A stretch of 64,000 bases of DNA from Actinocorallia sp. API 0066 (GTDB taxonomy: Bacteria > Actinomycetota > Actinomycetes > Streptosporangiales > Streptosporangiaceae). Numbering within the stretch: the first letter of the stretch is position 1; each line of letters begins with the position of its first letter. Below the pieces are notes generated by a model. It saw nothing but the letters and a program-made list of their open reading frames with translations, did not search any database and had not been told where the DNA came from. The stretch lies in NCBI RefSeq assembly GCF_020991275.1, contig NZ_JAJLQY010000016.1, positions 105,022-169,021 on the forward strand. Reading direction: 5' to 3'. Made by a program: the position numbers and the translations under genes. Of this stretch, positions 7,837 through 48,900 are shown in pieces.

Positions 7837-8065
7837 ATGCCTGTTGGACGCCAATTCGAATAGCCCTGGCCGGGTGCCGGGACCTGCATTCACCCTGTGG
7901 ATCAAGCGGCTGACCTGTTCTTTCTCGCCGGGTTGTGCGCGAGCACACTAGAACGGTCCCGATCGTGTTCCCGCACAATTCGCCGAAGAAGCGTTGACTG
8001 CTAATTGTCCGACGTGTCAGGGTCGGGCCGTTCCCGCTGAATTCTCCACCCCGAGGGGGAAAGAA

Positions 8066-32955: not shown

Positions 32956-34203
32956 CTATCGACCGGCTTTCGCCGTGCCGTCGTCGCGGGGGAACAGGGC
33001 GAGCCAGGCGACGCCGGAGACGGCCATCAGGGTGCCCAGGAGCGCGGGGAGCAGGCGGGGGCCGAGCACGTCCAGGAGTGCGCCCGCCGCGGCGGCGGAG
33101 GCGGCGAGGCTCGCGGTGGCGACGGCGCTCCACAGCGACGTCACGCGCCCGCGCAGCGCGTCGGGCGTCGCGGACAGCAGCGCGCCCATGGCGGTCGGCC
33201 CGTACACGACGTCGGAGGCGGCGGCCGCACCCCACAGCAGCAACGTCACGGCCGGTAGGGACGGCAACCCGAGCGGGATAGTGAACAGGCCCTCCAGCAG
33301 GCACGAGAGGCCGACCACCCGAAGCCGGACGTGGGGCGAGGCGCGTTGCAGCCGCCCCGAACACGTCAACAGCACCAGCGCGCCGACCACGCCCTGCACG
33401 GCGTAGAACCACCCGGTACCTCCGTCGCCCAGGTCGTGGACGCGGAGCGCGAGGTGCGTCATGACGGTGATGGTGCCGCCGAGGCCCAGGCAGAACGCGG
33501 CCTCCAGGCAGAGCAGCGCGGCGATGAGCCGGGTGCGCGCCGCCACGCGCAGCCCCTCGCGGAGCGACGCGAGCCAAGGCGTGCGGGTCGTACCACCGCC
33601 CCGCCTACTGCCCGCCGTGACGCGCGCCGTCAGCACCAGCGAGAGCACGAACGAGGCGGCGTTGACGACGAAAGCCCACCGCCACCCCACGAGCCCGATG
33701 ACGGCCGCGCCCGCCAGCCCCCCGACCGCCTGGAACACCATCCCGTTGACCTGCACGGCGGCCGAATACAGGACGTACTCGTCGTCACGGACGAGTGATG
33801 GCATCCAGGCCGAGCGCGCCGCCTGGAACACGTATCCGACGGCCGCGGAGGCGAATGTGAGCGGGTAGACGAGCCAGAGGGAGGCCCGGCTGTCCGCTAG
33901 GAGGAACGTAAGCGCGAGCGCGGCCAACAGGCCGTCGCAGACCAGCATGACAAGGCGCCGGTCGGCCCGGTCGGCGAGCACGCCGCCCCACGGGCCGACG
34001 AGCAGGCCGGGCAGGTAGCGCAGCGCGAGCGTCGCGCCCGCGGCGAGGGCGCCGCCGCTGTGCGCGTAGACCATCGCGAACACGGCGACGGCGCTGAACC
34101 AGCCGCCGCACACGCTGACGAGGTTGCCGAGCCACAGGAGCCGGAAGTCGCGGTTGGCCGACAGCAGGGGGAGCAGCCCGGGGGCGGGCGAGGCGGTCAC
34201 CAT
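32956..34203 (-). CDS. MFS exporter of the EntS type
   Basis: A 415-residue transporter of the MFS_3 group, which includes the enterobactin exporter EntS: FRLLWLGNLVSVCGGWFSAVA, GPWGGVLADRADRRLVML as motif A, and DALRGRVTSLWSAVATASLA in the second half. About 12 membrane segments. The gene diverges from a YcaO peptide operon, and the Zur-like box lies in the shared promoter region. Export of the peptide product, possibly a metallophore, is the natural inference. Confidence 0.85.
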   Translation of the reverse strand: MVTASPAPGLLPLLSANRDFRLLWLGNLVSVCGGWFSAVAVFAMVYAHSGGALAAGATLALRYLPGLLVGPWGGVLADRADRRLVMLVCDGLLAALALTFLLADSRASLWLVYPLTFASAAVGYVFQAARSAWMPSLVRDDEYVLYSAAVQVNGMVFQAVGGLAGAAVIGLVGWRWAFVVNAASFVLSLVLTARVTAGSRRGGGTTRTPWLASLREGLRVAARTRLIAALLCLEAAFCLGLGGTITVMTHLALRVHDLGDGGTGWFYAVQGVVGALVLLTCSGRLQRASPHVRLRVVGLSCLLEGLFTIPLGLPSLPAVTLLLWGAAAASDVVYGPTAMGALLSATPDALRGRVTSLWSAVATASLAASAAAAGALLDVLGPRLLPALLGTLMAVSGVAWLALFPRDDGTAKAGR

Positions 34204-34224
34204 GGCTCAGCACTCTAGCGACAT

Positions 34225-34239
34225 TGACAACCATTTTCA
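34225..34239. promoter_or_regulatory. Zur-type zinc box in a divergent promoter
   Basis: TGACAACCATTTTCA is a 7-1-7 inverted repeat matching 12 of 15 positions of the actinobacterial Zur box TGAAAATGATTTTCA, followed by more AT-rich TTTTCGTTTTGA. For the plus-strand operon, TTGACA at 34224-34229 and TTGATA at 34248-34253 (18-base spacer) form a plausible promoter whose -35 the box covers. Zur with zinc would therefore block both the peptide operon and the exporter. Confidence 0.65.
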
Positions 34240-34369
34240 TTTTCGTTTTGATACGAGGGTCGCGCCGGAGATGCCGGAAAGGCCCGCTTCTGCGAAGTTG
34301 TCGGGCTTTGCCGTGCCTCCGCGCTGACGTCCCCTGTCCGCCTACTCGTCCCGGAAGGAGGTGAACAAG

Positions 34370-34465
34370 GTGAAGGTCACGAAGCTGGCGGTCGCGAAGA
34401 GCCGCGGCCAGGTCCACTCGTCCAACCACGCCACGGCGCGCTCCTCCGCCATCGCCTGGCGCTAA
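34370..34465 (+). CDS. Putative RiPP precursor peptide
   Basis: A 31-residue peptide starting at GTG 34370, 8 bases after a perfect AAGGAGG (34355-34361). A Lys/Val-rich leader-like part (MKVTKLAVAKSRGQ) precedes SSNHATARSSAIAWR, which holds four Ser and one Thr available for azoline formation, and a terminal Trp-Arg. There are two His in the C-terminal half and no Cys at all. It is followed by a hairpin and then the E1-like, hydrolase-fold and two YcaO genes, the usual order of a precursor gene. I do not recognise the sequence; the precursor role is inferred from size, ribosome site and context. Confidence 0.7.
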   Translation: MKVTKLAVAKSRGQVHSSNHATARSSAIAWR

Positions 34466-34486
34466 CCCCGTCACCCCCCAACGGGG
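34466..34486 (+). terminator. Intercistronic hairpin after the precursor gene
   Basis: CCCCGT (34466-34471) pairs with ACGGGG (34481-34486) immediately after the TAA. A weak terminator at this place commonly lets precursor message exceed enzyme message in RiPP operons. Confidence 0.45.
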
Positions 34487-34534
34487 CCGGGCGCGGCTCC
34501 CACGCCGCCCCCGGCCCCTCACCAAGGAGTCCCC

Positions 34535-35809
34535 ATGCCCTCCGCCCCCCGCTGGGCCCCCGGCACCTCAGTCATCCCCGCCACCCCGTCCTGGCTCATC
34601 CACACCCCCACCGAGGAGTTCCTCACCCTCACCCCCAACGAACCCTCCACCTCCGACGAACACCCACATGCGCCCGAGACCGTCGAAGGCACGGCCGACG
34701 TAGCTTCTGGCGAGCCCTTCAGCGCAGGCCAGCAGCCGGACCTAGGCGCACCGGAGGCCGTCGAAGGCACGCCCGACGCGGCTCTTGCCGAGCCTGCCAC
34801 CGGTGCGCGCTCGGACCTCGGCGCACCCGAAGCCGCCGAAGGCGCGACCGACATCGCTTTCACCGAGCCCACCACCACAGGCGAGCGCCCGCACCCGCGC
34901 GCGCCTGAGGCCGGTGAAAGCGCGTCCGACGCAGCTCCTGACGAGTTCTCCGCCTCGGGTGGGCGCTCGGATCTCCGCGTGCCGGAAGCCGGTGAAGGCG
35001 CGTCTGACGTGGGTTCTGGTGGGTCTTCGACCGTCGGTGGGCACCCGGACTCCCGCGCGTCGGAGGGTGTTGTGGGCACGAGCGGCATGGCTTGTGAAGG
35101 GCCTGCTGGTGCGGGGGAGCGTCTGCGCCTGCGTGCGTCGAAGGCAGGTGACGGTGCTGAGGTGGCGGGGTTGGGGTGGGTGGAGGAGGAGGTGTTGGAG
35201 GCGCTTGAGGGCGAAGGGGTGTTGGTGGGGGTTGGGGCGGAGACGGGCGGAGTGGTGGGGGTGGTGGGGGAAGGAGCGGTTGTGGAGTGGCTTGTGGGGT
35301 TGTTGGAGGGGGTGGGGTTTCGGGTGGTTCGGGGGGATGAGAGTGCGTCGGTGGGGGAGGGGGTTTGGGCGGTGGTGTCGGTTGCGGAGTGGTTGCCGGA
35401 TCGGCGGTGGGCGGCGGTTGAGGAGGAGGTCGTCCGGGCGGGGGTGGCCTGGCATCGGGTGTACGGCGAGGGGCGGCGGTGGTACGTCGGGCCGTTCTGG
35501 ACGGGGGAGGGTGACGCCGGGTACGGGGACGTGCGGGTGCGGCGCCTGGCGGCCAGCCCGTGGCCGGAGCAGTTGGCGGCCTACTGGCGGTGGCTTGACG
35601 ACGGCGGGCGGCCCGAGCCGGATCCGGTCGGTGCGCCGGGCGCGGTGGCCGCCGCGGCGTTCGTCGTCGCCGACCTCGTCGCCCTGCGCGCCGGACGTGT
35701 CCCTCCTGGGCGGAATGTCCAGGTCGGTATCGACCTCACCGAGGGCGTCGTGCGTAGGCATCCCGTCCTACCTGTCCCGGTCGGGTTGATGCGGGAGGTC
35801 CCGGCGTGA
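34535..35809 (+). CDS. E1-like/TOMM cyclodehydratase partner protein with repetitive N-terminus
   Basis: A 424-residue protein in two parts. Residues about 40-205 are acidic and low-complexity, built of imperfect 25-30-residue repeats around PEAxEGxxDxA. Residues about 210-424 resemble the ThiF-like (E1) partner of azoline-forming YcaO enzymes: AGVAWHRVYGEGRRWYVGPF and YGDVRVRRLAASPWPEQL match the layout of cyclodehydratase C/F components. The CxxC zinc pair usual in that motif is missing (YGD replaces CyxC). It likely binds the precursor leader and presents it to a YcaO. ATG 34535 follows AAGGAG. Confidence 0.55.
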   Translation: MPSAPRWAPGTSVIPATPSWLIHTPTEEFLTLTPNEPSTSDEHPHAPETVEGTADVASGEPFSAGQQPDLGAPEAVEGTPDAALAEPATGARSDLGAPEAAEGATDIAFTEPTTTGERPHPRAPEAGESASDAAPDEFSASGGRSDLRVPEAGEGASDVGSGGSSTVGGHPDSRASEGVVGTSGMACEGPAGAGERLRLRASKAGDGAEVAGLGWVEEEVLEALEGEGVLVGVGAETGGVVGVVGEGAVVEWLVGLLEGVGFRVVRGDESASVGEGVWAVVSVAEWLPDRRWAAVEEEVVRAGVAWHRVYGEGRRWYVGPFWTGEGDAGYGDVRVRRLAASPWPEQLAAYWRWLDDGGRPEPDPVGAPGAVAAAAFVVADLVALRAGRVPPGRNVQVGIDLTEGVVRRHPVLPVPVGLMREVPA

Positions 35810-37293
35810 GCGCGCGCGTGCTTCCGGAGCTTCCCTTGGCCGTCGCGGACGGCACCGTCCTCATCGGCGACCTGTTCCTACCGGAGGCGGACGCCTCCGC
35901 GTGCGTCGTGGCACGCACGCCGTACGGGACGCCAGGGCTGTGGCCGGAGGCGGTCGCCCTTGCTGAGGCCGGTCTCGCGGTGCTCGTCCAGGACGTTCGT
36001 GGCCGGCACCGCTCCGGCGGGACGTTCCGGCCCGGCGCCGACGAGGCACCGGACGGGACGGCGACGCTCGACTGGGTCACCGCGCAGGAGTGGTCCGACG
36101 GACGGGTGCTGCTCGCCGGCACCGCCTACGAGGCGTACACGGCCTGGTGCGCGGCTCCGCATCCGGCCGTCGTGGGCGTCGCGTCCAGGCAGCCCTGGCC
36201 GTCCGAGGACGCGCCCGCCCTCGACGACGAACTCTGGTGGCGCACCGACCTGGGCACGGGCGACACCGTCCGTCCCGGCCTTTACGACGCCGTCACCGCG
36301 CTCGCCCCCGGCCTCGCCGACGCCCTGGCGTCCCCCGGCTTCGGCGACCGCTGGCCCGTCCCCCTCGGCCCCTGGCCGCCCACGCGCGACACCTGGGCGG
36401 AGCCCCGAGAGCGGGCCGCCCGAGCCGTCCAGGCCGCTTCCGTCCCCACCCTCCACCTGGGCAGCTGGTACTGCGCCTCCGCCGCGACGACCCTCCGACA
36501 CGCCCGCCTCGCCCACGCCGCCACCGTCGTCGTGGGCGGCTGGGCCTCCCCTCTCACCCACCACCTCCTCCCCGACTGCGCCCTCACCCTCCCCGAGGGC
36601 CCCGACCCCACCGACCTCATGCACACCTGGCTCCTCGCCCAAGCCCACGCCACCCCCTTCCCACCCCCACCCCTCTGCCTCGTCCTCCCCGAAGCCTGGA
36701 CGGCCCGCTCTCCCCTCCAGCCTCCCGCACCGCGGCGAGCACCAGAGGACGTCGCGCAAACGATGCCGTTGGACGCCACCGCGACGCCCCTCCCCTCGTC
36801 GGCGTCCGGGAGGCGAGCGGCGGCTGTGCGGCCGTCGCCGCGCGACGTCGCGGCTGAGGCGGTGTTTCGGCTGCTGGGCGGGCCCGGGGCCCGGGTGCCG
36901 TCCGCGGGGCACTCGGCCGATCTGGGGCCCGCGCGGGAGGGGCCGGGGCTGGTGCGGCTCGAGTTCGCCGGGCCGGTCGGCTGGCACGGGGCCGCGCGGC
37001 TCGGGGTCGAGGTGCGGGCGCCCGAGGAGGTCGGGCTCGTGGCGACGTTCGTGCACGCGCGGCCCGACGGAGTCCGAACGCGGATCACGGACGCCGTCGC
37101 GCGGGTTCCGGCCGGCGGCGGGCGGGTCGAGCTGCGGGCCGCGCCGACGGCGGTCCGGCTGCCGGAAGGGCACGCGCTCCACGTCGAGCTCACCGTCGGC
37201 CGGCCGCCGCGCCACGCCGCCCCCGCGCGGCCGGTGGCGCTCGACCTCGTCCCGCAGCCGCTGCTGCTTCCCCAGCCGGAGGACCTTCCGTGA
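35806..37293 (+). CDS. CocE/X-Pro peptidase-like alpha/beta-hydrolase fold, nucleophile lost
   Basis: A 495-residue protein of the CocE/NonD (S15) superfamily. The oxyanion strand is ARTPYGTPGLWPEAVALAEAG, then VLVQDVRGRHRSGGTF and LDWVTAQEWSDGRVLLAG. At the nucleophile elbow, where the family has GxSYxG, this protein reads GTAYEAYTAW, so the catalytic serine is alanine. A PepX_C-like beta domain occupies the last 130 residues. BotH of bottromycin biosynthesis is a known RiPP hydrolase-fold enzyme without its serine that acts as an epimerase, so a non-hydrolytic role is plausible. GTGA overlaps on both sides. Confidence 0.7.
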   Translation: MSARVLPELPLAVADGTVLIGDLFLPEADASACVVARTPYGTPGLWPEAVALAEAGLAVLVQDVRGRHRSGGTFRPGADEAPDGTATLDWVTAQEWSDGRVLLAGTAYEAYTAWCAAPHPAVVGVASRQPWPSEDAPALDDELWWRTDLGTGDTVRPGLYDAVTALAPGLADALASPGFGDRWPVPLGPWPPTRDTWAEPRERAARAVQAASVPTLHLGSWYCASAATTLRHARLAHAATVVVGGWASPLTHHLLPDCALTLPEGPDPTDLMHTWLLAQAHATPFPPPPLCLVLPEAWTARSPLQPPAPRRAPEDVAQTMPLDATATPLPSSASGRRAAAVRPSPRDVAAEAVFRLLGGPGARVPSAGHSADLGPAREGPGLVRLEFAGPVGWHGAARLGVEVRAPEEVGLVATFVHARPDGVRTRITDAVARVPAGGGRVELRAAPTAVRLPEGHALHVELTVGRPPRHAAPARPVALDLVPQPLLLPQPEDLP

Positions 37294-38681
37294 ACACCGA
37301 ACTGCTCGTAGACGAGCGCACCGGTATCGTCGCCAGGCTCTTCGCCGCCGACCCCGAACCGTGGTGGCCGCCCGGCCTTACGGTCTGCGGCACCCATGTC
37401 GGCGACCTCGCCGCGCACCTGCCGTGGCCCGCCGACCGGGTCTCCACCGGGACCGCGTTCGCCGACCCCGATCGGGCTGAGAAGTCCGCCGTAGGGGAGG
37501 CGATAGAGAGGTACTGCGGCAACTTCGTCCCCGAAGGGCTGCGACGGGCGACGTACCGGGAACTCGTAGAAGCCGGGTACAGGGCCGTCGATCCGGAAGG
37601 GCTCGCCCTGTACTCGCGCGAGCAGTACGCGGAGCCCGGCTCCCCGTTCGTCCCCTTCGAGCGCGACCTATCGGTGCTCTGGACGCACGGCGTCACGCTG
37701 CCGGAGGACGAGCCCGTCCTTGTGCCCGCCTCGCTCGTCTACCTGAACTACCACCAGCCGCCGCGCGCCGGCGAACCCGTCACCAACTTCGTGATGCTCG
37801 CCGGGATCGCCGCCGGGCCCGACGCCCGCGCCGCCCGCACCGCCGCCCTGGAGGAGGTGATCGAGCGGGACGCCACCGTCGTCTGGTGGGCGAACCGGCT
37901 ACCCGCGCGGCCCGTGGACGTCGCGCACCCACGCCTCGCCCCGTACCTGACCCCGGACGGACGCGGACCCGGCTGGGCGACGGCCACCGGGGTGGAGGCA
38001 CCCTGCCGCTATCGGGTCGTCGCCCTCCCGACGGTCTTCGACGTCGCCGTCATCGGGGTACTCCTTGACGACCCCGAGTACAAGCTGTCCGTCTTCGGGG
38101 TGGCCGCGCGGCCCGATCCCGTCGACGCCGTCTTGAAGGCGCTGGCCGAGGCCGTCACGCTGCGGCGTTACGCGCTCGGCCTACTCGACCCGGACGGCGA
38201 CCTGTGGGTGTCGGCCAGGGAGGGCACCATCCCTATCGAGTTCTTCCATCCGCACCGCCACGACCGCCGTTACACCGACTCCTACCGTGGCGACTTCCGC
38301 GACGTCGTGGACCTGTCCTGCCACAGCCAGATCTGGCTCGACCCAAGGCTCCGCCCGCACCTGACGCCCATCACGGGCGACGACCGCGTCATCGCCCTGG
38401 ACGACCTCCCGCGCGTCGAGGGCGACCCCTACACCGCCTACCTGGAGCGGCTCGCGCGCGTCGGCCTTACGGCGCACGCGGTCGACGTCACCACGCCCGA
38501 CGTGGCGGCCGCCGGGGTGAGCGTAAGCAGGGTCGTCGTCCCCGGCGCCTACTCCAACGCACCCGCCGCGTTCCCCTTCCTCGGCGGCGAGAGGCTCCGC
38601 ACCGACCCCGTGCGGCTCGGCCTACGGTCCGCCCCGACCCGCGACGACGAGCTCAACCTCGTCCCGCTCCCGCACACGTGA
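37290..38681 (+). CDS. YcaO-domain protein 1 (ATP-dependent backbone cyclisation enzyme)
   Basis: A 463-residue YcaO protein. Its ATP/Mg-binding elements are visible: EKSAVGEAIERYCG near residues 63-76 and ALEEVIERDATVVWW near 190. The characteristic RRYTDSYRGDFRDVVDLS and VPGAYSNAPAAFPFLGG follow. The C-terminus ends in LVPLPHT, a Pro-rich tail like that of azoline-forming YcaOs, where it reaches the active site. Such enzymes phosphorylate peptide amides to form azolines, thioamides or amidines. With no Cys in the precursor, oxazoline or amidine chemistry is the more likely. Confidence 0.85.
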   Translation: MNTELLVDERTGIVARLFAADPEPWWPPGLTVCGTHVGDLAAHLPWPADRVSTGTAFADPDRAEKSAVGEAIERYCGNFVPEGLRRATYRELVEAGYRAVDPEGLALYSREQYAEPGSPFVPFERDLSVLWTHGVTLPEDEPVLVPASLVYLNYHQPPRAGEPVTNFVMLAGIAAGPDARAARTAALEEVIERDATVVWWANRLPARPVDVAHPRLAPYLTPDGRGPGWATATGVEAPCRYRVVALPTVFDVAVIGVLLDDPEYKLSVFGVAARPDPVDAVLKALAEAVTLRRYALGLLDPDGDLWVSAREGTIPIEFFHPHRHDRRYTDSYRGDFRDVVDLSCHSQIWLDPRLRPHLTPITGDDRVIALDDLPRVEGDPYTAYLERLARVGLTAHAVDVTTPDVAAAGVSVSRVVVPGAYSNAPAAFPFLGGERLRTDPVRLGLRSAPTRDDELNLVPLPHT

Positions 38682-40132
38682 CCGCCCCCGACGCGCGCTG
38701 CGGCGTCGTCACCCGCCTGGACCACGGCACGTCCCACGGCGTCCTGCGCACCGCGACGGCGACGCTCGCCGCCACCGACGCCTACGCCCTGCCCCTGGGC
38801 AACCCCGTCGTCGGCGGCGCCTCCTGGACGTCCCCCGCGCGGGCCGCCCAGCGCGCGCTGGGCGAGGCCGTCGAACGCCTCGCAGGCCACCTCGTGGACC
38901 CCGCCCGCCTCCGCTTCGCCACCGCCGCCGCGCTGGGCGCCTCCGCCCTGGACGTCACCACGCTCGCCCTCTACCGCCCCGCCCAACGCGCCCGCCCGGG
39001 ATTCCCCTTCTCCGGCCTCGACCCCTCCGCCGCCCGCCACTGGACCCTCGCCCACGACGACCAAGGCACCGCCTTCTGGGTCCCCGCGTCCCTCATCTGG
39101 CTAGCCCCTGGCCCCCATGCCCACGACCACCGCGAACCGCCCAGTCATGTGCCTACTGGGCACTCTCGGACAGACAGCCCTGGATCACCCGATCGTGCGA
39201 ACCACGTCGACGTCTGGTCGGCCCCCGGCCCGCACACTCAAGGCCACATTCCCGGCGAGTCGTCCAACCCGCTGCGCATTGGGCAGAACGGGACGGACCG
39301 TCGCCTGTCGTCCGACCAGACGAACCGTGCCGAACCCCCCGCCGGGGCTCCCGAAACCCTCGGTGAGGGAAGGGCGCCGCATCTACCGGTGGGGGCGGGC
39401 TTGGCGGCAGGGGAGACGTTCGCGGCCGCGCGGGCGGGAGCACTTGCCGAGGTGGTGGAGCGGCACGCCCTGGCGACGGCCTGGTACGCGGGGGCGAGGT
39501 TTCCGGAGTTGCCGGAGCAGCCGGTGCCGCGCCCAGCCGGGGTGCGCCTGGTGTGGCACGCGGTGCCGAACCTGCTGGGCGCGCCCGTCGTCGCGTGCGC
39601 GGCTTACGCCGGGGACGCTGTCGTGCTCGGATGCGCGCTCGCACCGGAGGCGCCCGACCCGGTGCGCGTGGCCGGACGCAAGGCGGCAGCCGAGGCGCTC
39701 GCCTCGCTCGACGCGCTGGCCGCGGTGCGCGCGGGCGTGCCCGAGTGGGACGCGGTGCTGCACCCGGTCCGCGCGGACCGGCGCTACGCCGACTCCTACC
39801 GGCCCGACCTGTCCGACGCCACCGACCTCGTCTGCACCCTGCAGCTCCTCGCCGACCCCCGGGTGGCGGCGGCCGTCGCCACCCGCCTGGCCAGCGGCGT
39901 CCCACGCGGCTCCTGGCGGCCCGGACCGATCGCGCTCGACCCCGCCCTGCGCGCCCGCGGCCGCACCGCCCTGACCGTCGATCTGAGCCCGCCGGGGCCG
40001 CCCGGCCCGCGCGTCGCCAGGGTCCTCGTGCCCGGCCTGCGCTCGGTCGCCCCCGCCGCCTTCCCGTTCCTCGGCGACGGCGCGGAACCCCTCCCGGCGA
40101 CCACGGAGACCCTGCCGCTCCCGCATGTCTGA
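38678..40132 (+). CDS. YcaO-domain protein 2 with a large loop insertion
   Basis: A 484-residue YcaO protein, second of the pair. Conserved parts: AAQRALGEAVERLAGHL, then AGALAEVVERHALATAWY, RRYADSYRPDLSDATDLV, and VPGLRSVAPAAFPFLGDG. It ends in LPLPHV. Between VPASLIWLAPG and LPVGAGLAAGETF it carries about 85 extra residues (39113-39376), hydrophilic and rich in His, Ser, Thr, Asn and Pro, which YcaO 1 lacks. DNA of that insert is less GC-rich than its surroundings. Starts at GTG 38678 by a GTGA overlap. Confidence 0.8.
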   Translation: MTAPDARCGVVTRLDHGTSHGVLRTATATLAATDAYALPLGNPVVGGASWTSPARAAQRALGEAVERLAGHLVDPARLRFATAAALGASALDVTTLALYRPAQRARPGFPFSGLDPSAARHWTLAHDDQGTAFWVPASLIWLAPGPHAHDHREPPSHVPTGHSRTDSPGSPDRANHVDVWSAPGPHTQGHIPGESSNPLRIGQNGTDRRLSSDQTNRAEPPAGAPETLGEGRAPHLPVGAGLAAGETFAAARAGALAEVVERHALATAWYAGARFPELPEQPVPRPAGVRLVWHAVPNLLGAPVVACAAYAGDAVVLGCALAPEAPDPVRVAGRKAAAEALASLDALAAVRAGVPEWDAVLHPVRADRRYADSYRPDLSDATDLVCTLQLLADPRVAAAVATRLASGVPRGSWRPGPIALDPALRARGRTALTVDLSPPGPPGPRVARVLVPGLRSVAPAAFPFLGDGAEPLPATTETLPLPHV

Positions 40133-40196
40133 CCCCCTACCGGCCACCGCCGGAGAACCCTCCGGCGCCGGTCATCGCAAGAGAGAAGGAAACCCA

Positions 40197-41147
40197 GTGA
40201 ACAGAACGGCGGTCTTCACCTCCGCCCTGACCCTGTGCCTCGCCCTCGCCGCCTGCGGCGGTGGAGGCGACAAGACGGCCGACGCGGCCTCCACGGCACC
40301 CGTCACCGTCGAGAACTGCGGCGCCTCCTACACGTTCACCCGGACACCGGAGAAGGTCGTCACCTCCAGCACCGTCGCTACCGAGGTCGTCCTGGCGCTC
40401 GGCCTGAAGGACCGCCTGGCGGGCACCGTGGCGGCCAAGGACATCGTGCCGGAGTACGCGTCCGCCCTGGACAGCGTCAAGGTGATCGCCGAGCAGGCGT
40501 TCCCGCCGCCGTCGAAGGAGGTCGTCTATTCGGTCGGGCCCGACTTCGTCGTCAGCGGCTACCCGGACGACTACGGGCCCAAGGCCATGGGCGACCGGGA
40601 AGCTCTGCAGCGGGAAGGGGTCAACACCTACCTCCTGTCGGCCAACTGCCCCGGCCACAAGGCGAACCTGGACGACGTGTACGCCGACCTCACCCACCTC
40701 GGCCGGGTCTTCGGCGTCGAAGGGGCGGCGACGGACCTCGTCGCGAAGCTCAAGGCAGACATCGCAGCGGTACGGCCCGCTACGGGCGCCCCCAAGGTGT
40801 TCGACTACGCGGGCGGCAAGGACAAGCCCGCGACAGCGGGGTCCCGCGCTCTCATCGACGACCTCATCACCCGCGCGGGCGGCTCGAACATCTTCCCTGA
40901 GGTCACCTCCTACACGCAGGTGAGCTGGGAGGAGGTCGTCAAGCGGAACCCCGACGTGATCGTGGTGGAGGACCAGGCGTTCGAGCCCGCCGACGCGGCC
41001 ATCGCCTTCATGCGCTCGTTCGGCCCGCTCAGGGACGTCACGGCGGTCCGGGAGAACCGGTTCGTCGTCATCCCCGTCAACGACACACAGCCGGGCGTGC
41101 GGGGCACCCGAGCCCTGCGGACGCTCGCCACGGGGTTCGGCGCGTGA
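40197..41147 (+). CDS. Metallophore-binding lipoprotein (FecCD-type ABC system)
   Basis: A 316-residue extracytoplasmic binding protein of the FhuD/BtuF fold. The lipobox is ALAAC, with CGGGGDKTADA after it. The class III binding-protein signature is seen in PEKVVTSSTVATEVVLALGLKD, VGPDFVVSGYPDDY, and the second lobe VSWEEVVKRNPDVIVVED. GTG 40197 has GAGAGAAGGA upstream. It is encoded directly after the YcaO genes and 4 bases over the permease, so it likely recognises the peptide's metal complex. Confidence 0.85.
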   Translation: MNRTAVFTSALTLCLALAACGGGGDKTADAASTAPVTVENCGASYTFTRTPEKVVTSSTVATEVVLALGLKDRLAGTVAAKDIVPEYASALDSVKVIAEQAFPPPSKEVVYSVGPDFVVSGYPDDYGPKAMGDREALQREGVNTYLLSANCPGHKANLDDVYADLTHLGRVFGVEGAATDLVAKLKADIAAVRPATGAPKVFDYAGGKDKPATAGSRALIDDLITRAGGSNIFPEVTSYTQVSWEEVVKRNPDVIVVEDQAFEPADAAIAFMRSFGPLRDVTAVRENRFVVIPVNDTQPGVRGTRALRTLATGFGA

Positions 41148-42199
41148 ACCTGACGGTTCGTGGCGCGGGACGGCTCTTGGGCCGTCCCGCGTTGCCCGCC
41201 CTCCTCGTCCTTGCTCTCCCGGCCTCCCTGGTGACGGCCGTAGGACTCGGCCCTGTATCGATCCCCTTCACCGACGTTGCACGCATCGTCGGCCATCACT
41301 GGCTTCCGTGGCTTGTGGAGGCGGGGCCGTCAGGGCCGCAGGCCGTCATCGTGCTCGATCTGAGGCTGCCCAGGGTGCTGCTGGGCGCCGCCGTAGGCGC
41401 GGGCCTCGCTGTCGTCGGCGCGGTGACGCAGGCCGTGTTGCGCAACCCTCTGGCCGACCCTTATCTGCTCGGTGCGTCCTCCGGCGCGTCGTTCGGTGCG
41501 GTCTGTGTGCTCATCGTGGGGTTCAGCCCGTTCGGTGTGTTCTCGCTGCCGCTCGCGGCGTTCGCCGGGGCGATCGGCGCGTTCACCCTGGTGCTGCTGC
41601 TGGCCGGAGGCGCGGGACGGCTCGCGCCGACCCGGCTCATCCTGGCCGGGGTCGCGGTCGCCGCGTTCACCGAGGCCGTCACCCACTACCTTGTGCTCAC
41701 TTCTCCCGACAAAGAGGTGCGTTCCGCGATGTTCTGGACGCTGGGCGGGCTCGGCGGCACCCAGTGGCGCGACATCGGCGTCCCGATCCTTGTGGTGCTG
41801 TGCGGCACCGCGTGGTTCTGGGCCAACGCCGCGCGGCTCAACGCGCTCGTCCTGGGCGACGAGGGCGCCACGAGCCTCGGCCTTGAAATCGACGGCCTAC
41901 GGCGTCGGATGGTCGTCGGATGCGCACTCGTCGTCGGGGCCGTCGTGGCGGTGAGCGGCGGCATCGGGTTCGTCGCGCTCATGGTGCCGCACGCCGTCCG
42001 GCTGGCGCTCGGCGCCGACAACCGGCTCGTGCTGCCGGTGAGCGCGCTCGCGGGCGCGGTGCTGCTGGTGTGGGTGGACGTCGCCGCGCGGACGCTCCGC
42101 CGCCCCGACGAGATCCCCGTCGGCGTCCTCACCGCCCTCATCGGCGTGCCGTTCTTCCTCGCGCTGCTGCGCCGCGCCGACCGGGCGGAGACCGCGTGA
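41144..42199 (+). CDS. FecCD-family ABC permease
   Basis: A 351-residue permease with about ten membrane segments. Family landmarks: LRLPRVLLGAAVGAGLAVVG, QAVLRNPLADPYLLGASSGA, FWTLGGLGGTQWRDI, and GGIGFVALMVPHAVRLALG. Such permeases import siderophores, haem, cobalamin or other metal complexes. GTG 41144 overlaps the binding-protein stop by GTGA. With no cobalamin riboswitch or haem gene nearby and a Zur box at the head of the operon, uptake of the locus's own product is likely. Confidence 0.9.
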   Translation: MNLTVRGAGRLLGRPALPALLVLALPASLVTAVGLGPVSIPFTDVARIVGHHWLPWLVEAGPSGPQAVIVLDLRLPRVLLGAAVGAGLAVVGAVTQAVLRNPLADPYLLGASSGASFGAVCVLIVGFSPFGVFSLPLAAFAGAIGAFTLVLLLAGGAGRLAPTRLILAGVAVAAFTEAVTHYLVLTSPDKEVRSAMFWTLGGLGGTQWRDIGVPILVVLCGTAWFWANAARLNALVLGDEGATSLGLEIDGLRRRMVVGCALVVGAVVAVSGGIGFVALMVPHAVRLALGADNRLVLPVSALAGAVLLVWVDVAARTLRRPDEIPVGVLTALIGVPFFLALLRRADRAETA

Positions 42200-43017
42200 A
42201 GCCCGTCGCCGTCAGGCTTGACGCGGTGTCGTGGGCCCCGGCCGGGCTGTCCGGGATCTCCTTCGACGTCGCGCCAGGGGAGACCCTCGGGCTGCTCGGC
42301 CCCAACGGAAGCGGGAAGTCCAGCCTTCTGCGCTGCGTCTACCGGCACGTCCGGCCGTCGTCGGGAGCCGTCCTTGTTGATGGCGCTGACGTGTGGCGTA
42401 CTCCTGCGCGCCTGGTGGCGCGGATGGTGGCGGCTGTCACGCAGGACGTCCCGGGCGACCTCGACACGACGGTGGAACAGGTCGTCTCCCTGGGGCGGCT
42501 GCCTTACCTCGGCACCCTGGGCCGGCTTGGACGGGACGACCTCAGGCTCGTCCGGGAAGCCATGGAACGCTGTGACGTGACGTCGCTGGCCCGGCGTCGT
42601 ATGGCGACGCTCTCAGGAGGGGAGCGCAAACGCGTCCAGGTGGCCCGCGCGCTGGCCCAGCGACCCCGGCTGCTCGTCCTCGACGAGCCGACCAACCACC
42701 TCGACCCGCATCACCAGGTGGCGCTGTTCCGCCTTCTGGCCGACCTGGACGTCACCGTCCTCATCGCCCTCCACGACCTCAACCTGGCCGCCGCCACCTG
42801 CGACCGCCTGGCCGTGCTCCACCACGGCCGCCTGACGTCACTCGGCTCACCCGCCGAGACCCTCACACCCGCCCTACTGTCCACCGTCTACCGCGTCTCC
42901 GCCGACGTCACCCCCTCACCCACCGGCCCTCCCACCGTCACCCTCCACCTCCCGGAACGCCCCAGCCGAGGCCGGAACGTGACGTCGCGGGGCCAGGCGG
43001 TCGAGCACCCGATGTGA
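42196..43017 (+). CDS. FecCD-type ABC transporter ATP-binding protein
   Basis: A 273-residue ATPase. Walker A is GPNGSGKSSLLRC, the Q-loop is AVTQDVPGDLDTTVEQVV, the signature is LSGGERKRVQVARAL, Walker B is LLVLDEPTNHLDPHHQ, and the H-loop is IALHDLNLAAATC. It belongs to the FepC/FhuC group. GTG 42196 overlaps the permease stop. It is the last gene of the presumed operon that begins with the peptide precursor; a strong hairpin follows at 43064-43097. Confidence 0.9.
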   Translation: MKPVAVRLDAVSWAPAGLSGISFDVAPGETLGLLGPNGSGKSSLLRCVYRHVRPSSGAVLVDGADVWRTPARLVARMVAAVTQDVPGDLDTTVEQVVSLGRLPYLGTLGRLGRDDLRLVREAMERCDVTSLARRRMATLSGGERKRVQVARALAQRPRLLVLDEPTNHLDPHHQVALFRLLADLDVTVLIALHDLNLAAATCDRLAVLHHGRLTSLGSPAETLTPALLSTVYRVSADVTPSPTGPPTVTLHLPERPSRGRNVTSRGQAVEHPM

Positions 43018-45853: not shown

Positions 45854-45943
45854 CCGTTACCACCCGACGGCGGCCGCGACACCTCGCGGCCGCCGTCACT
45901 CGTGTGCCGCACGGTGACATTTCCGTGCCCTTGGTGCTGCACC

Positions 45944-48900
45944 ATGGAGGTGATGCGCTCCACGGGGGTTCAAGAGACGAGGAACCGGGACGCGCCCTCG
46001 GGCAGGCTGCTTGCGGTCTCCACCCTGGGCGTCGCGCTCTCGGTGGTCGTCGGCCTCGTCGGGAACGTGGTGACGTCCGGCCCGCTCCCGCTCGGCCTCG
46101 ACCGCTTCAAGGGCTATGCCCCATTTGTCCTGGTCGGTGGGTTCCTGCTGCTGCTCGGCGTCACGGTGACGCAGATCGCCGCGGAGGCGCGGACGACGGC
46201 ACGCCGCGACGGCCCTGAGGCGGCGCGCGAGCGAGGGGTCTTCCGGGGCTGGCCGTGGGCGGCGTTCGCCTCGGGTCTGCTCGCTGTCAGCGTGGCCGTC
46301 CTGCGCGGCTTCGGTGCGATCCCCTCCGGCCTCGACCCCTGGGCCGTCGTGCTGACGGCCGCCGCCAGCGTCGTCAGCCTCGGGATCGTCTGGGCGCAGT
46401 TCCTCTGGCGGCGTCGGCAGCTCCGTAGGCTGCCTCCCGCCCTGCGTGCCCTCCTCGACGTCCAAGGCAGAGGCGCCAGGGCCGCGCACCGGTACAGCTA
46501 CTCCGTCGGCAGCACTCCGCCGCTCATGGAGATCTACGTCGAGCAGCAGAGCGAGCGGCTCGGGGCGCCGCGCGCGCAGGGCGGTCCGCTTACGCTCGCC
46601 CAGATGCTCGCCGCCAGTCGGCACTGCCTTGTGCTCGCCGAGCCGGGCGTAGGGAAGTCGACCGCTGTCACCCGGGTGCTCCAGGAGCAGAGCGCCTGGT
46701 GGCTCACCGCCCGACGCTCCGCCGACCCCGCGACGGCGCCGTACGGGTCCGTCGTCCCCGTCCTGCTCCCGCCCGACCTGCACCACCGCGAGACCCCCGC
46801 CGAGGCGCTGGCGGCCGAATGCGCCGCCCGCACCGGGCGCGAGGTGGCCGCCGCGCTCTTTGAGGGACCGCCGCCGGACGGCGAGCGCTGGCTCGTCCTC
46901 ATCGACGGCATCGACCATGTGTTCCTCACCCGGGAGCGCACCGAGGTGCTGGCCAGGCTCGGTCGCTGGATGGCCGACGGCGCCGCGCACCACCGCTTCC
47001 TCATCACGACCCGGCCGCTGCTGCGCGGCGAGCTCGGCCTGCTCGGCGCGGACACCGCCGACAGGTACGTCCTCCAGAAGTTCGACGAGGCGGGCCTGCG
47101 GACGTTCGTCGAGCGGTGGGTCGCGTTCCGGACGGCGCAGAACGTACCGGGCATCGACCCTGAGCCGATCACGGTCGAACTGTTCCTGGCGAGCGTGGCG
47201 TCGTCGTCCCTGTCGGCGCTGGTACGCATCCCGCTTATCGCCAGCATCACGGCGCTCCTCCTGGAGTGGAGCCGGGAGTCCGCCCTACCGACGAGCCGGG
47301 CGGGCTTGTATGAGGTGTACATAAGGCACCTGCTGGATTCCCGGCACATGGAAGCCGCCCGTCCCGCTGCCGAGTTCGAAGGTGCGGGCGACCGGGGCAG
47401 GGCCGCGTGGGTGTGGCTGCACGACAACCTCCGTCCGCTTCTGGAGGGCGCGGCCGATCTGCACCTTTCGTCCGCCAGGCCCGGGGTGCACGAGTGCGCC
47501 GTCCGCTGGGTCGAGGACAGCGCGCCGCCCGGCATCCTGCGCGGCGTCCCGGCCTGGCGCGAGGCGCTCGGCCGCGTCCTGGTGAGCACGAGTCTTATCG
47601 TGCCGGGCCCCGGCGGGCTCAGGTTCCTGCACCCCAGCTTCGCCGAGTATCTCGCCGCAGGGCCGCGCGGCCGGGCCTTCGCGTTGGAGACCTGGCTCGC
47701 CGACGCGCGCAACCCCGACAGCCGGGCGCTCGCCCTTTTTGTCCTCGCCCGGATGGCCGAGCGGAACCGGGGCGCGAGCCTCGGCGACACGTTCGCCGAA
47801 CTCACCCTGGACCGCGGGGCCGCCGACGTGCTCGTCGCCGGGGCGATCATCGCCGACGGCATCGAGGTGGCGCCCGAGTCGCGCGACCGCACCGTCGCCG
47901 CCCTGTTCGACATGCTCCGGCGGGACGACCAGACCGCCGCCGACGCGCTCGGCGTGCTCCTCGACCTCACCTTCGACGCCGACGTCAGGGCCCGGCTCGT
48001 CGCCTTCGCCGCCGATCCGGCACACCCCGACTGGATCCGCGCCGACGTCGCCGAGGCGCTGTGCGGCGTGGACCGCACCCAGGGGGTCCGCCTGTGCCGT
48101 CGTGTTCTCGCCGTCACCAGCGATACCGCGCTCCGCCACCGTGTCCTGCTCCTACTGATCGACTTGGGCGAGGCCACCCACGACGAACTCCAGCGCGCCG
48201 CCCTGACGACCTTCGACCCGGCCGCCGAGACGACGGGCTTCCGTGCCGTCCGATGGTTCCGCGACATGGCGGACGACCCGGCCGCCCGCCCCCGCGACCG
48301 CCTGGCCGCCCTGACGGCTCTCGCCGTGCGCGACGACGCCGTCGAGGACGCGCGGTTCGAGGAGGCGCTGCTGCACCCGGAGACGACGGTCCAGGACCGC
48401 CTCCAGGCCGCGCGGGCGGTCGTCCGCGCGGACGGCGAACGCGCCACCGCGATCCGCGCCCTCATCCGCCGCGTCGCCTTCGCCGGACACCCACCGGACG
48501 TCGAAGTCCCCCTCCTGGCCGCCCTGGCCGCTGACGGCGACGACGGCGCCCGCGTCACCCTCCTGAACCGCTCGTACGAACTCGGCCCCGCCTTCCACAG
48601 CGCCTATCCGTTCGTCCAGGCACTGCGCGACACCGTCGGCACCCGAAGTTCCGAAGCCACCCCCCGGCCCTGGGACGAACCCCCCGACCGGGACTCCCCG
48701 GACGACTCCGAACACCCCATGACCATCACCCCCGCCGGCACCACCGTGCGCCCAGAGGCAATCGTGTCGCGGGGCAGCGTCCCCGCACCGTTCGTACCCT
48801 CCGGGGATCGGGTGATCTGGCATGGCGTCCCCGACCGCAACCCCCGCTTCGTCGGCCGCGAACACCTCCTGACCCGGCTCACCGAGCGCTCCACCCACGC

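What the first reader, a model, noticed from the sequence alone, without database searches (positions are those of the whole stretch)
34225..43017. Zinc-controlled two-YcaO RiPP locus with its own exporter and metallophore importer
A 12/15 Zur-box match lies in the divergent promoter of an EntS-like exporter and an operon. The operon runs from a 31-residue peptide through an E1-like protein, a hydrolase-fold protein and two YcaOs to a lipoprotein, FecCD permease and ATPase, joined mostly by 4-base overlaps. Import and export genes with zinc repression are the hallmarks of a metallophore system, but known zincophores come from NRPS or nicotianamine-like enzymes. A ribosomal YcaO-made zinc (or other metal) chelator would be a new type; methanobactin is the only well-known RiPP metallophore, and it binds copper without YcaO.
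Basis: partly seen in the sequence, partly recalled or inferred. Interest (0 to 1): 0.93.

Follow-up and report, generated by a model that had tools for sequence, protein, structure and literature searches.

The report
Zinc-switched ribosomal peptide zincophore cluster
Eight adjacent genes and a divergent MFS transporter gene in an actinobacterium share a zinc-repressor-type DNA site that also stands before the genome's zinc-uptake genes, and are predicted to make, export and re-import a small modified ribosomal peptide that would fetch zinc, a role suspected but not shown for its known relative streptamidine.

Summary
The box at 34225-34239 is one of five perfect sites of the actinobacterial Zur motif in the 7.0 Mb genome (reversed control 0); one other precedes znuA. 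A matrix trained on non-RiPP zinc genes scores it 27.4; the window's next site scores 7.6. Streptamidine-type loci carry the box 75-93 bases before amiA (9 of 10), a third clade at its divergent promoter (9 of 12); a fourth lacks it (0 of 14) but has cobalamin riboswitches beside the operon (9 of 14). Seven class-A loci add a TfuA-YcaO pair. A Zur-controlled YcaO RiPP zincophore is the best reading, unproven: no zinc binding is known, and published tests of streptamidine found no metal binding and no mutant phenotype. New variant of the streptamidine-type cluster; a RiPP zincophore would be a new function. The 'hydrolase' lacks its serine in 16 of 18 loci.

The parts
34225..34239 (.). Zur-type box TGACAACCATTTTCA, in the divergent promoter region
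   Evidence: a site scoring 18 or more at this junction in 17 of 18 class-A loci, window included
34224..34229 (+). TTGACA, candidate -35 hexamer of the operon, overlapped by the box (the -10 at 34247-34252, TTTGAT, is weak)
   Evidence: read from sequence; the stricter scan found no promoter; TTGACA is also seen in L005-L009 and L044
32956..34203 (-). MFS transporter, likely exporter of the peptide (EntS/TIGR00900-like, below cut-offs)
   Evidence: in 18 of 18 class-A loci with upstream DNA
34353..34361 (+). ribosome-binding site GGAAGGAGG of the precursor
34370..34465 (+). precursor peptide, 31 aa, MKVTKLAVAKSRGQVHSSNHATARSSAIAWR; invariant K5 L6 H16 S17 N19 H20 T22 W30 R31
34483..34518 (+). 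GC-rich hairpin between precursor and E1 gene, a possible attenuator or processing site
   Evidence: clear hairpins there in 11 of 16 relatives read, the other five folded only in short stretches
34535..35809 (+). E1-like/leader-binding protein (AmiB homologue), with a repetitive insertion not seen in the seven relatives aligned
35806..37293 (+). CocE/NonD-fold protein (AmiC homologue), nucleophile Ser replaced by Ala
37290..38681 (+). YcaO1, SagD-type cyclodehydratase (TIGR03604, 259.2 bits, over cut-off)
38678..40132 (+). YcaO2, divergent YcaO with a long window-specific insertion
40197..41147 (+). substrate-binding lipoprotein (PF01497; TIGR03868-like, below cut-off)
41144..42199 (+). FecCD-family permease
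42196..43017 (+). ABC ATPase of the importer

Best explanation
The genes at 32956-43017 share a Zur-type box and likely form a zincophore system: when zinc is short, zinc-free Zur is predicted to leave the box and release both divergent promoters, so that a 31-residue ribosomal peptide would be made, modified, exported, loaded with zinc and taken back. Steps: (1) The E1-like protein would bind the leader around MKVTKLAV and present the core to YcaO1, which would cyclodehydrate the backbone with ATP, most likely at the invariant Ser17 (oxazoline) or, as in streptamidine, as an amidine at the new N-terminus; YcaO2 would assist. (2) The leader would be removed before His16; how is open. (3) The MFS protein would export the product. 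(4) Two invariant histidines (His16, His20) plus the new ring nitrogen, and in some relatives a thioamide, would bind zinc. (5) The lipoprotein-FecCD-ATPase importer would recover the complex. Shown: box, its rarity and conservation, the genes, precursor conservation, homology to the streptamidine enzymes. Inferred: Zur binding, chemistry, zinc binding, direction of transport.
For: Regulation: 5 perfect sites in 7.0 Mb, reversed control 0. Beside the other four: a ZnuA gene (PF01297); ribosomal L33/L28/S14 genes facing a CobW gene; a PF20704 gene with a ferredoxin; an ATPase-like gene without a Pfam match. Of four Fur-family genes the best lies 1.7 kb from znuA and is closest to 3mwm (9.7e-52; recalled as S. 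coelicolor Zur) and 2o03 (FurB, 2.2e-41). Footprint: a matrix from 11 non-RiPP zinc boxes scores 18 or more at the expected junction in 17 of 18 class-A loci (window included; miss L093, 13.6), 9 of 12 family-B loci and 9 of 10 streptamidine-type loci, and nowhere in 14 family-C loci; best of 55 reversed sequences 14.8, next 11.3. Nine family-B genomes hold 21 perfect sites; of the 15 made into loci, seven lie beside ZnuA, ABC-3 permease, S14 or CobW-type genes, three are the RiPP loci and five have no zinc gene that I recognised. Five streptamidine-type genomes hold nine: four in the ami locus, one between AztA and AztB zinc-transport genes, four unassigned. Genes: lipoprotein and FecCD in 19 of 19 class-A loci, ATPase in 15 of 19 (in the other four the fetched stretch ends inside FecCD), MFS in 18 of 18. 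Precursors: 18 of 18 with H-S-x-N-H-x-T and W-R. E1 fold. Thioamidation pair TfuA + third YcaO in 7 of 19.
Against: No metal binding was found for purified streptamidine (Fe, Co, Cu, Mg, Mn, Ni, Zn), and the amiD mutant looked like wild type under metal starvation (PMC8442711); the authors name loss of part of the peptide as one of several possible reasons for an unexplained enzyme. No dehydrogenase was recognised in the window operon. The hydrolase lacks the nucleophile in 16 of 18, so leader removal has no clear enzyme, although the closest solved YcaO, MusD, belongs to an entry titled YcaO-mediated peptidase activity. The core has no Cys; short His/Ser peptides bind zinc weakly unless the modification helps (general knowledge). 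More distant relatives do not all fit: L012 and L039 have E1 and YcaO genes without a recognised importer or box, L031 has no importer hit or box, L103 and L104 have related precursors but no box at one mismatch. About half of the perfect sites in the family-B and streptamidine-type genomes stand by no gene that I could tie to zinc. The importer best matches a hypothetical 'F420-0' transporter family, below cut-off.
Confidence: 0.62

Rival explanations
1. The peptide is a Zur-timed antimicrobial or signal: zinc shortage only serves as the cue, the MFS protein gives export and immunity, and the importer takes up another compound or a competitor's zincophore.
For: Many YcaO RiPPs with known activity are antibacterial (recalled); published streptamidine binds no tested metal, and its authors suggest signalling or development as possible roles.
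Against: Importer genes lie in the same gene run in 19 of 19 class-A loci, and MFS gene, precursor and importer share one box region; no antibacterial or antifungal activity of streptamidine was found.
Confidence: 0.15
2. It is a metallophore for another metal (copper, nickel, cobalt) or a broad one, expressed under zinc shortage.
For: A sister clade with the same enzyme type has cobalamin riboswitches beside it, so the scaffold may serve other metals; staphylopine is described as broad-spectrum (abstract start).
Against: No cobalamin riboswitch in 15 class-A loci scanned nor in the window, and the box is shared with znuA.
Confidence: 0.12
3. The product works inside the cell or at the membrane as a zinc chaperone or reserve, and the importer delivers free zinc or another zincophore.
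For: A CobW-type gene shares the box in this genome and one sits directly before the precursor in L104.
Against: The MFS gene faces the same box in 18 of 18 class-A loci, and ABC exporter homologues lie in 12 of 12 family-B loci and in four streptamidine-type stretches.
Confidence: 0.06
4. The box is a chance match or belongs to another Fur-family regulator.
For: Three further Fur-family genes exist; several perfect sites in relatives have no zinc gene beside them.
Against: Reversed controls 0; conserved at the same junction across clades; shared with znuA.
Confidence: 0.03

Closest known systems
Streptamidine (ami) cluster, Streptomyces albidoflavus J1074 (PMC8442711; parts 1-4 of 5 read)
   Same: E1-like AmiB (30-44% local identity to the window E1), CocE-fold AmiC (38-48%, local) and YcaO AmiD (34-35%) in the same order after a short His-containing precursor, with FecCD and ATPase genes; both carry Zur-type boxes.
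   Different: window precursor HSSNHAT...WR instead of HLSATH...ALVENPF; two YcaOs; one permease gene; MFS and no ABC exporter pair; no AmiE dehydrogenase recognised; YcaO1 in a separate clade
Family B: twelve YcaO loci with an importer divergent from ABC exporters (L013, L014, L016, L018-L020, L022, L023, L027, L030, L032, L041)
   Same: YcaO relative (38-43%), short Asn/His-rich precursor ending in F-x-W, importer and exporter, Zur-type box at the divergent promoter in 9 of 12
   Different: two ABC exporter genes instead of MFS; E1 and YcaO probably fused in L020 (read from ORF length only)
Family C: SHTPAVD-type precursors (14 loci)
   Same: YcaO relative (39-44%), with SBP, FecCD and ATPase hits near by in 9 of 14
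   Different: no Zur-type box (0 of 14), cobalamin riboswitch beside the operon in 9 of 14
Coelibactin, Zur-repressed predicted zincophore of S. coelicolor (PMC5472717 passages; PMC3430247 abstract start)
   Same: Zur control of a predicted zincophore in an actinobacterium
   Different: non-ribosomal peptide
Methanobactin and other MNIO-made RiPP metallophores (listing, references)
   Same: ribosomal metal-binding peptides; thioamide chemistry would be shared with the TfuA-bearing relatives
   Different: MNIO enzymes, copper; no MNIO gene among the nine genes here

Membership tests
Streptamidine-type (ami) cluster | precursor with HLSATH-like core and ALV motif | tested here: not met
   18 class-A precursors have H-S-x-N-H-x-T and no ALV
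Streptamidine-type (ami) cluster | AmiB, AmiC and AmiD homologues in this order | tested here: met
   window E1, CocE and YcaO1 hit in this order in 10 of 10 streptamidine-type loci
Streptamidine-type (ami) cluster | YcaO inside the AmiD clade | tested here: not met
   ten streptamidine-type YcaOs and 18 class-A YcaO1 proteins are separate supported clades
Streptamidine-type (ami) cluster | flavin dehydrogenase AmiE | tested here: not met
   no dehydrogenase family among the nine genes; no AmiE query was run
Azol(in)e-forming YcaO RiPPs (TOMM/LAP) | SagD-type YcaO cyclodehydratase | tested here: met
   YcaO1 TIGR03604 259.2 bits, cut-off 219.25; YcaO2 104.4, below it
Azol(in)e-forming YcaO RiPPs (TOMM/LAP) | E1-like/leader-binding partner | tested here: met
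   by fold; TIGR03882 below cut-off
Azol(in)e-forming YcaO RiPPs (TOMM/LAP) | azoline or azole in the product | not testable with these tools
   needs mass spectrometry
Zur regulon | Zur box in the promoter region and a Zur gene in the genome | tested here: met
Zur regulon | Zur binding and zinc response | not testable with these tools
   needs footprinting and expression data
Zincophore | biosynthesis, exporter-type and importer genes linked under a zinc box | tested here: met
   direction of transport is inferred
Zincophore | zinc binding and zinc delivery by the product | not testable with these tools
   published negative for streptamidine
Methanobactin/MNIO metallophores | MNIO (DUF692) enzyme | tested here: not met
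   none among the nine genes

The most novel reading that the evidence does not exclude
Streptamidine, the window's peptide and two further clades are one superfamily of ribosomal YcaO-made metallophores whose metal is told by the switch before them: Zur for zinc (class A, family B, streptamidine type) and the cobalamin riboswitch for cobalt or corrinoids (family C), some of them hardened by thioamides, which would give the orphan streptamidine family its function.
Probability: 0.45. Interest if true: 0.92.

Novelty: new variant of a known kind. Interest (0 to 1): 0.83.

Why it matters
Streptamidine-type clusters were reported in over 230 species with unknown role (PMC8442711). The shared zinc box makes that question testable in one experiment: grow the producer with and without zinc, or delete zur, and look for the peptide and its zinc adduct. 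If right, zincophores would no longer be only NRPS or nicotianamine-like products (recalled), and YcaO chemistry would gain a metal-gathering function. The zinc/cobalamin split between sister clades would give a rule for predicting the metal from the regulator.

Tried and rejected
Chance match of the box: rejected by controls. One-mismatch boxes in the window's genome: 19 against 6 in the control, not used as evidence. sigma-70 scan of the junction: nothing found. A guessed DNA pattern for the streptamidine core plus ALV gave three unrelated hits in 121 genomes; the YcaO query then found the loci. The gene divergent from the importer genes of L170 and L171 (perhaps AmiX) was tested as a possible zinc chaperone: no NCBIfam match, no Pfam match except one below-cut-off PQQ_2, and for L170 no solved relative. 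Leader cleavage by the CocE-like protein: made unlikely by the missing serine (the G-x-S-Y nucleophile position is recalled).

Rows dropped or weak points: two queries were wrong (L065:1-400:+ is the wrong strand, its trehalase match is disregarded; L020:7813-7923 is not the precursor, which starts at 7923). In one search the script missed L096; its precursor is. L092, L154, L156 and L157 repeat genomes already counted. L158 and L165 (short contigs) and L155 (no E1 or CocE hit) were fetched and not counted; of 25 genomes with a match ten streptamidine-type loci were read in full. L017, L038, L042 and L045 are contig-end pieces in no class. Several streptamidine-type loci are near copies, so 9 of 10 means fewer independent events. 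L100 was left out of the tree by a length limit, and L099 falls outside the class-A clade. Sites of 18 or more away from the junction also exist: L094, L096, L019, L032.
Full report
OBSERVATION. Pfam and NCBIfam give MFS, CocE/NonD fold, two YcaO proteins, a periplasmic-binding lipoprotein, FecCD and an ABC ATPase. YcaO1 passes the SagD model (259.2 bits, cut-off 219.25); YcaO2 does not (104.4). The E1-like protein has only a weak sequence match (TIGR03882, 22.1 bits, cut-off 36.9), so I predicted the orthologue from L006 with eight relatives in the alignment (mean pLDDT 84.1); Foldseek's best matches are MccB, LynD and TruD and, lower, MusD and McbB (TM about 0.5), all E1-like RiPP enzymes. 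A YcaO search of the whole genome gave three matches, all inside YcaO1 and YcaO2.

THE BOX. TGANAANNNTTNTCA, the core of the published actinobacterial motif (PMC5472717, passages), occurs five times in the 7.0 Mb genome, reversed control none. The window's site is one. The other four neighbourhoods: a ZnuA gene (C41); ribosomal L33, L28 and S14 paralogues facing a CobW gene (C5); a PF20704 gene followed by a ferredoxin (C12); and an ATPase-like gene without a Pfam match, next to what reads as a cobalt-type ABC gene (C4, not run). Of four Fur-family genes the best lies 1.7 kb from znuA, likely in the same operon, and is closest to 3mwm (recalled as S. coelicolor Zur) and 2o03, named FurB. The box overlaps a TTGACA hexamer of the operon and lies 21 bases from the MFS start codon, so one bound Zur could cover both promoters (inference; the strict promoter scan found nothing).

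RELATIVES OF THE LOCUS. One scan with YcaO1 gave 42 loci, and 21 of 345 genomes of the order, the own genome included, have a close YcaO1. I read 19 class-A loci: window, L004-L011, L044, L090, L091, L093-L098, L100. L004 starts inside the CocE gene. All 19 have lipoprotein and FecCD; 15 show the ATPase (in the other four the stretch I fetched ends inside FecCD); MFS is present in the 18 with upstream DNA. All 18 with a precursor region have a 31-residue precursor (17, L096), in 14 distinct sequences among the 17, with invariant K5, L6, H16, S17, N19, H20, T22, W30 and R31. A GC-rich hairpin follows the precursor in the window and clearly in 11 of the 16 relatives folded; for the other five the stretch was short.

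FOOTPRINT. To avoid circularity I trained a matrix on 11 boxes that stand before zinc genes and not before RiPP genes, four from the window's genome and seven from family-B genomes. The window's box scores 27.4; the second best place in 64 kb scores 7.6. At 18 or more the junction is hit in 17 of 18 class-A loci, window included (L093 13.6), 9 of 12 family-B loci (L013 none, L014 12.5 and L032 12.3 at the right place) and 9 of 10 streptamidine-type loci (L153 15.0 at the right place); in the 14 family-C loci nothing exceeds 11.9. Of 55 reversed sequences the best scored 14.8 and the next 11.3. Against: L103 and L104, with related precursors, have no box at one mismatch, nor have L012, L031 and L039. 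The matching sites elsewhere in relatives are only partly zinc genes: in nine family-B genomes 21 perfect sites, of which 15 became loci, seven beside zinc genes, three the RiPP loci, five unassigned; G743 (L016) and G747 (L030) have no perfect site. In five streptamidine-type genomes nine sites: four in the ami locus, one between AztA and AztB, four unassigned.

STREPTAMIDINE. In 121 genomes of a Streptomyces-like genus (unnamed), 25 have a YcaO1 match at 1e-15. Ten loci read in full carry precursors such as MEQHKVFSPIAEQGQLAHLSATHSNALVENPFD..., with the published HLSATH core in seven, HQSATH in one and HDSASH in two. Behind them lie proteins homologous to the window's E1 (30-44% local identity), CocE (38-48%) and YcaO1 (34-35%): by order and content the published AmiB, AmiC and AmiD. 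The box starts 75-93 bases before amiA in nine, and a second, perfect one stands before the importer genes in three (L159, L164, L168). The paper (parts 1-4 of 5 read) states that metal import was suspected from the fec genes, that no metal binding was seen and that the mutant had no phenotype under metal starvation; the word Zur does not occur in it. Nine further paper searches listed no title or abstract start that ties a YcaO peptide to Zur; the library holds open-licence papers only, and most listed papers were not opened.

TREE. With 68 YcaO sequences, 18 class-A YcaO1 proteins (without L099 and L100), family B (12), family C (14), streptamidine type (10) and six YcaO2 proteins each form one supported clade; their branching order is open. 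Class A is therefore a separate line, not part of the AmiD clade.

THE OTHER SWITCH. Family C has precursors of the form ...SHTPAVDAPFEWRED. A cobalamin riboswitch stands beside the operon in nine of 14 (L015, L021, L024-L026, L028, L029, L035, L037; in L029 it faces the divergent SBP gene); L034 has one elsewhere; L033, L036, L040 and L043 have none. None was found in the window, in 15 class-A loci, in 12 family-B loci or in nine streptamidine-type loci. In the loci examined, zinc box and B12 switch do not occur in the same clade.

CHEMISTRY. YcaO1 aligns with the heterocyclases MusD, LynD and TruD. YcaO2 is more divergent. Seven class-A loci (L010, L093-L097, L100) and L099 add a third YcaO and TfuA (PF07812), the thioamidation pair, so their product would likely be thioamidated. 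The CocE-like protein has Ala or Gly where the family has its catalytic Ser in 16 of 18 loci (Ser only in L096 and L097; motif recalled).

VERDICT. Zinc regulation of this locus is strongly supported by sequence, not yet by experiment; that the product is a zincophore is the best single explanation (0.62), held back by the published negative on streptamidine and by the lack of any binding data.

Noticed in passing
L015, L021, L024-L026, L028, L029, L035, L037: Sister RiPP clade with SHTPAVD precursors and cobalamin riboswitches beside the operon; a likely cobalt or corrinoid counterpart.
   Followed up: partly
L159-L164, L166-L168: Streptamidine-type clusters carry Zur-type boxes before amiA, and three also a perfect one before the importer genes.
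   Followed up: yes
L010:11563-13951; also L093-L097, L100, L099: TfuA plus a third YcaO inside the class-A cluster: predicted thioamidation.
   Followed up: partly
about 34660-35170 and 39117-39380: Long repetitive insertions in the E1-like protein (75-bp tandem unit at 34737-34876) and in YcaO2, not seen at that length in the relatives aligned.
   Followed up: partly
35806-37293: CocE-fold protein without its catalytic serine in 16 of 18 loci, although conserved: perhaps a scaffold.
   Followed up: partly
L104:8859-10142: CobW-type GTPase gene directly before a family-B-like precursor, a further possible zinc link, though no box was found there.
   Followed up: no
G000:C4:123570 (L051) and G000:C12:451453 (L053): Zur-type boxes before an ATPase-like gene of unknown role and before a PF20704 'NucS shadow ORF' gene with ferredoxin.
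   Followed up: no
L111, L112, L113, L116, L117, L172, L173, L174, L176: Perfect Zur-type sites in relatives' genomes with no zinc gene that I recognised beside them.
   Followed up: no
40197-43017: Importer proteins match NCBIfam 'putative F420-0 transporter' models best, below cut-off, and similar importers sit by YcaO genes in family B, so that hypothetical name may need review.
   Followed up: no
45902-51496: 1864-residue ORF that looks like an NTPase with C-terminal repeats (no family search).
   Followed up: no
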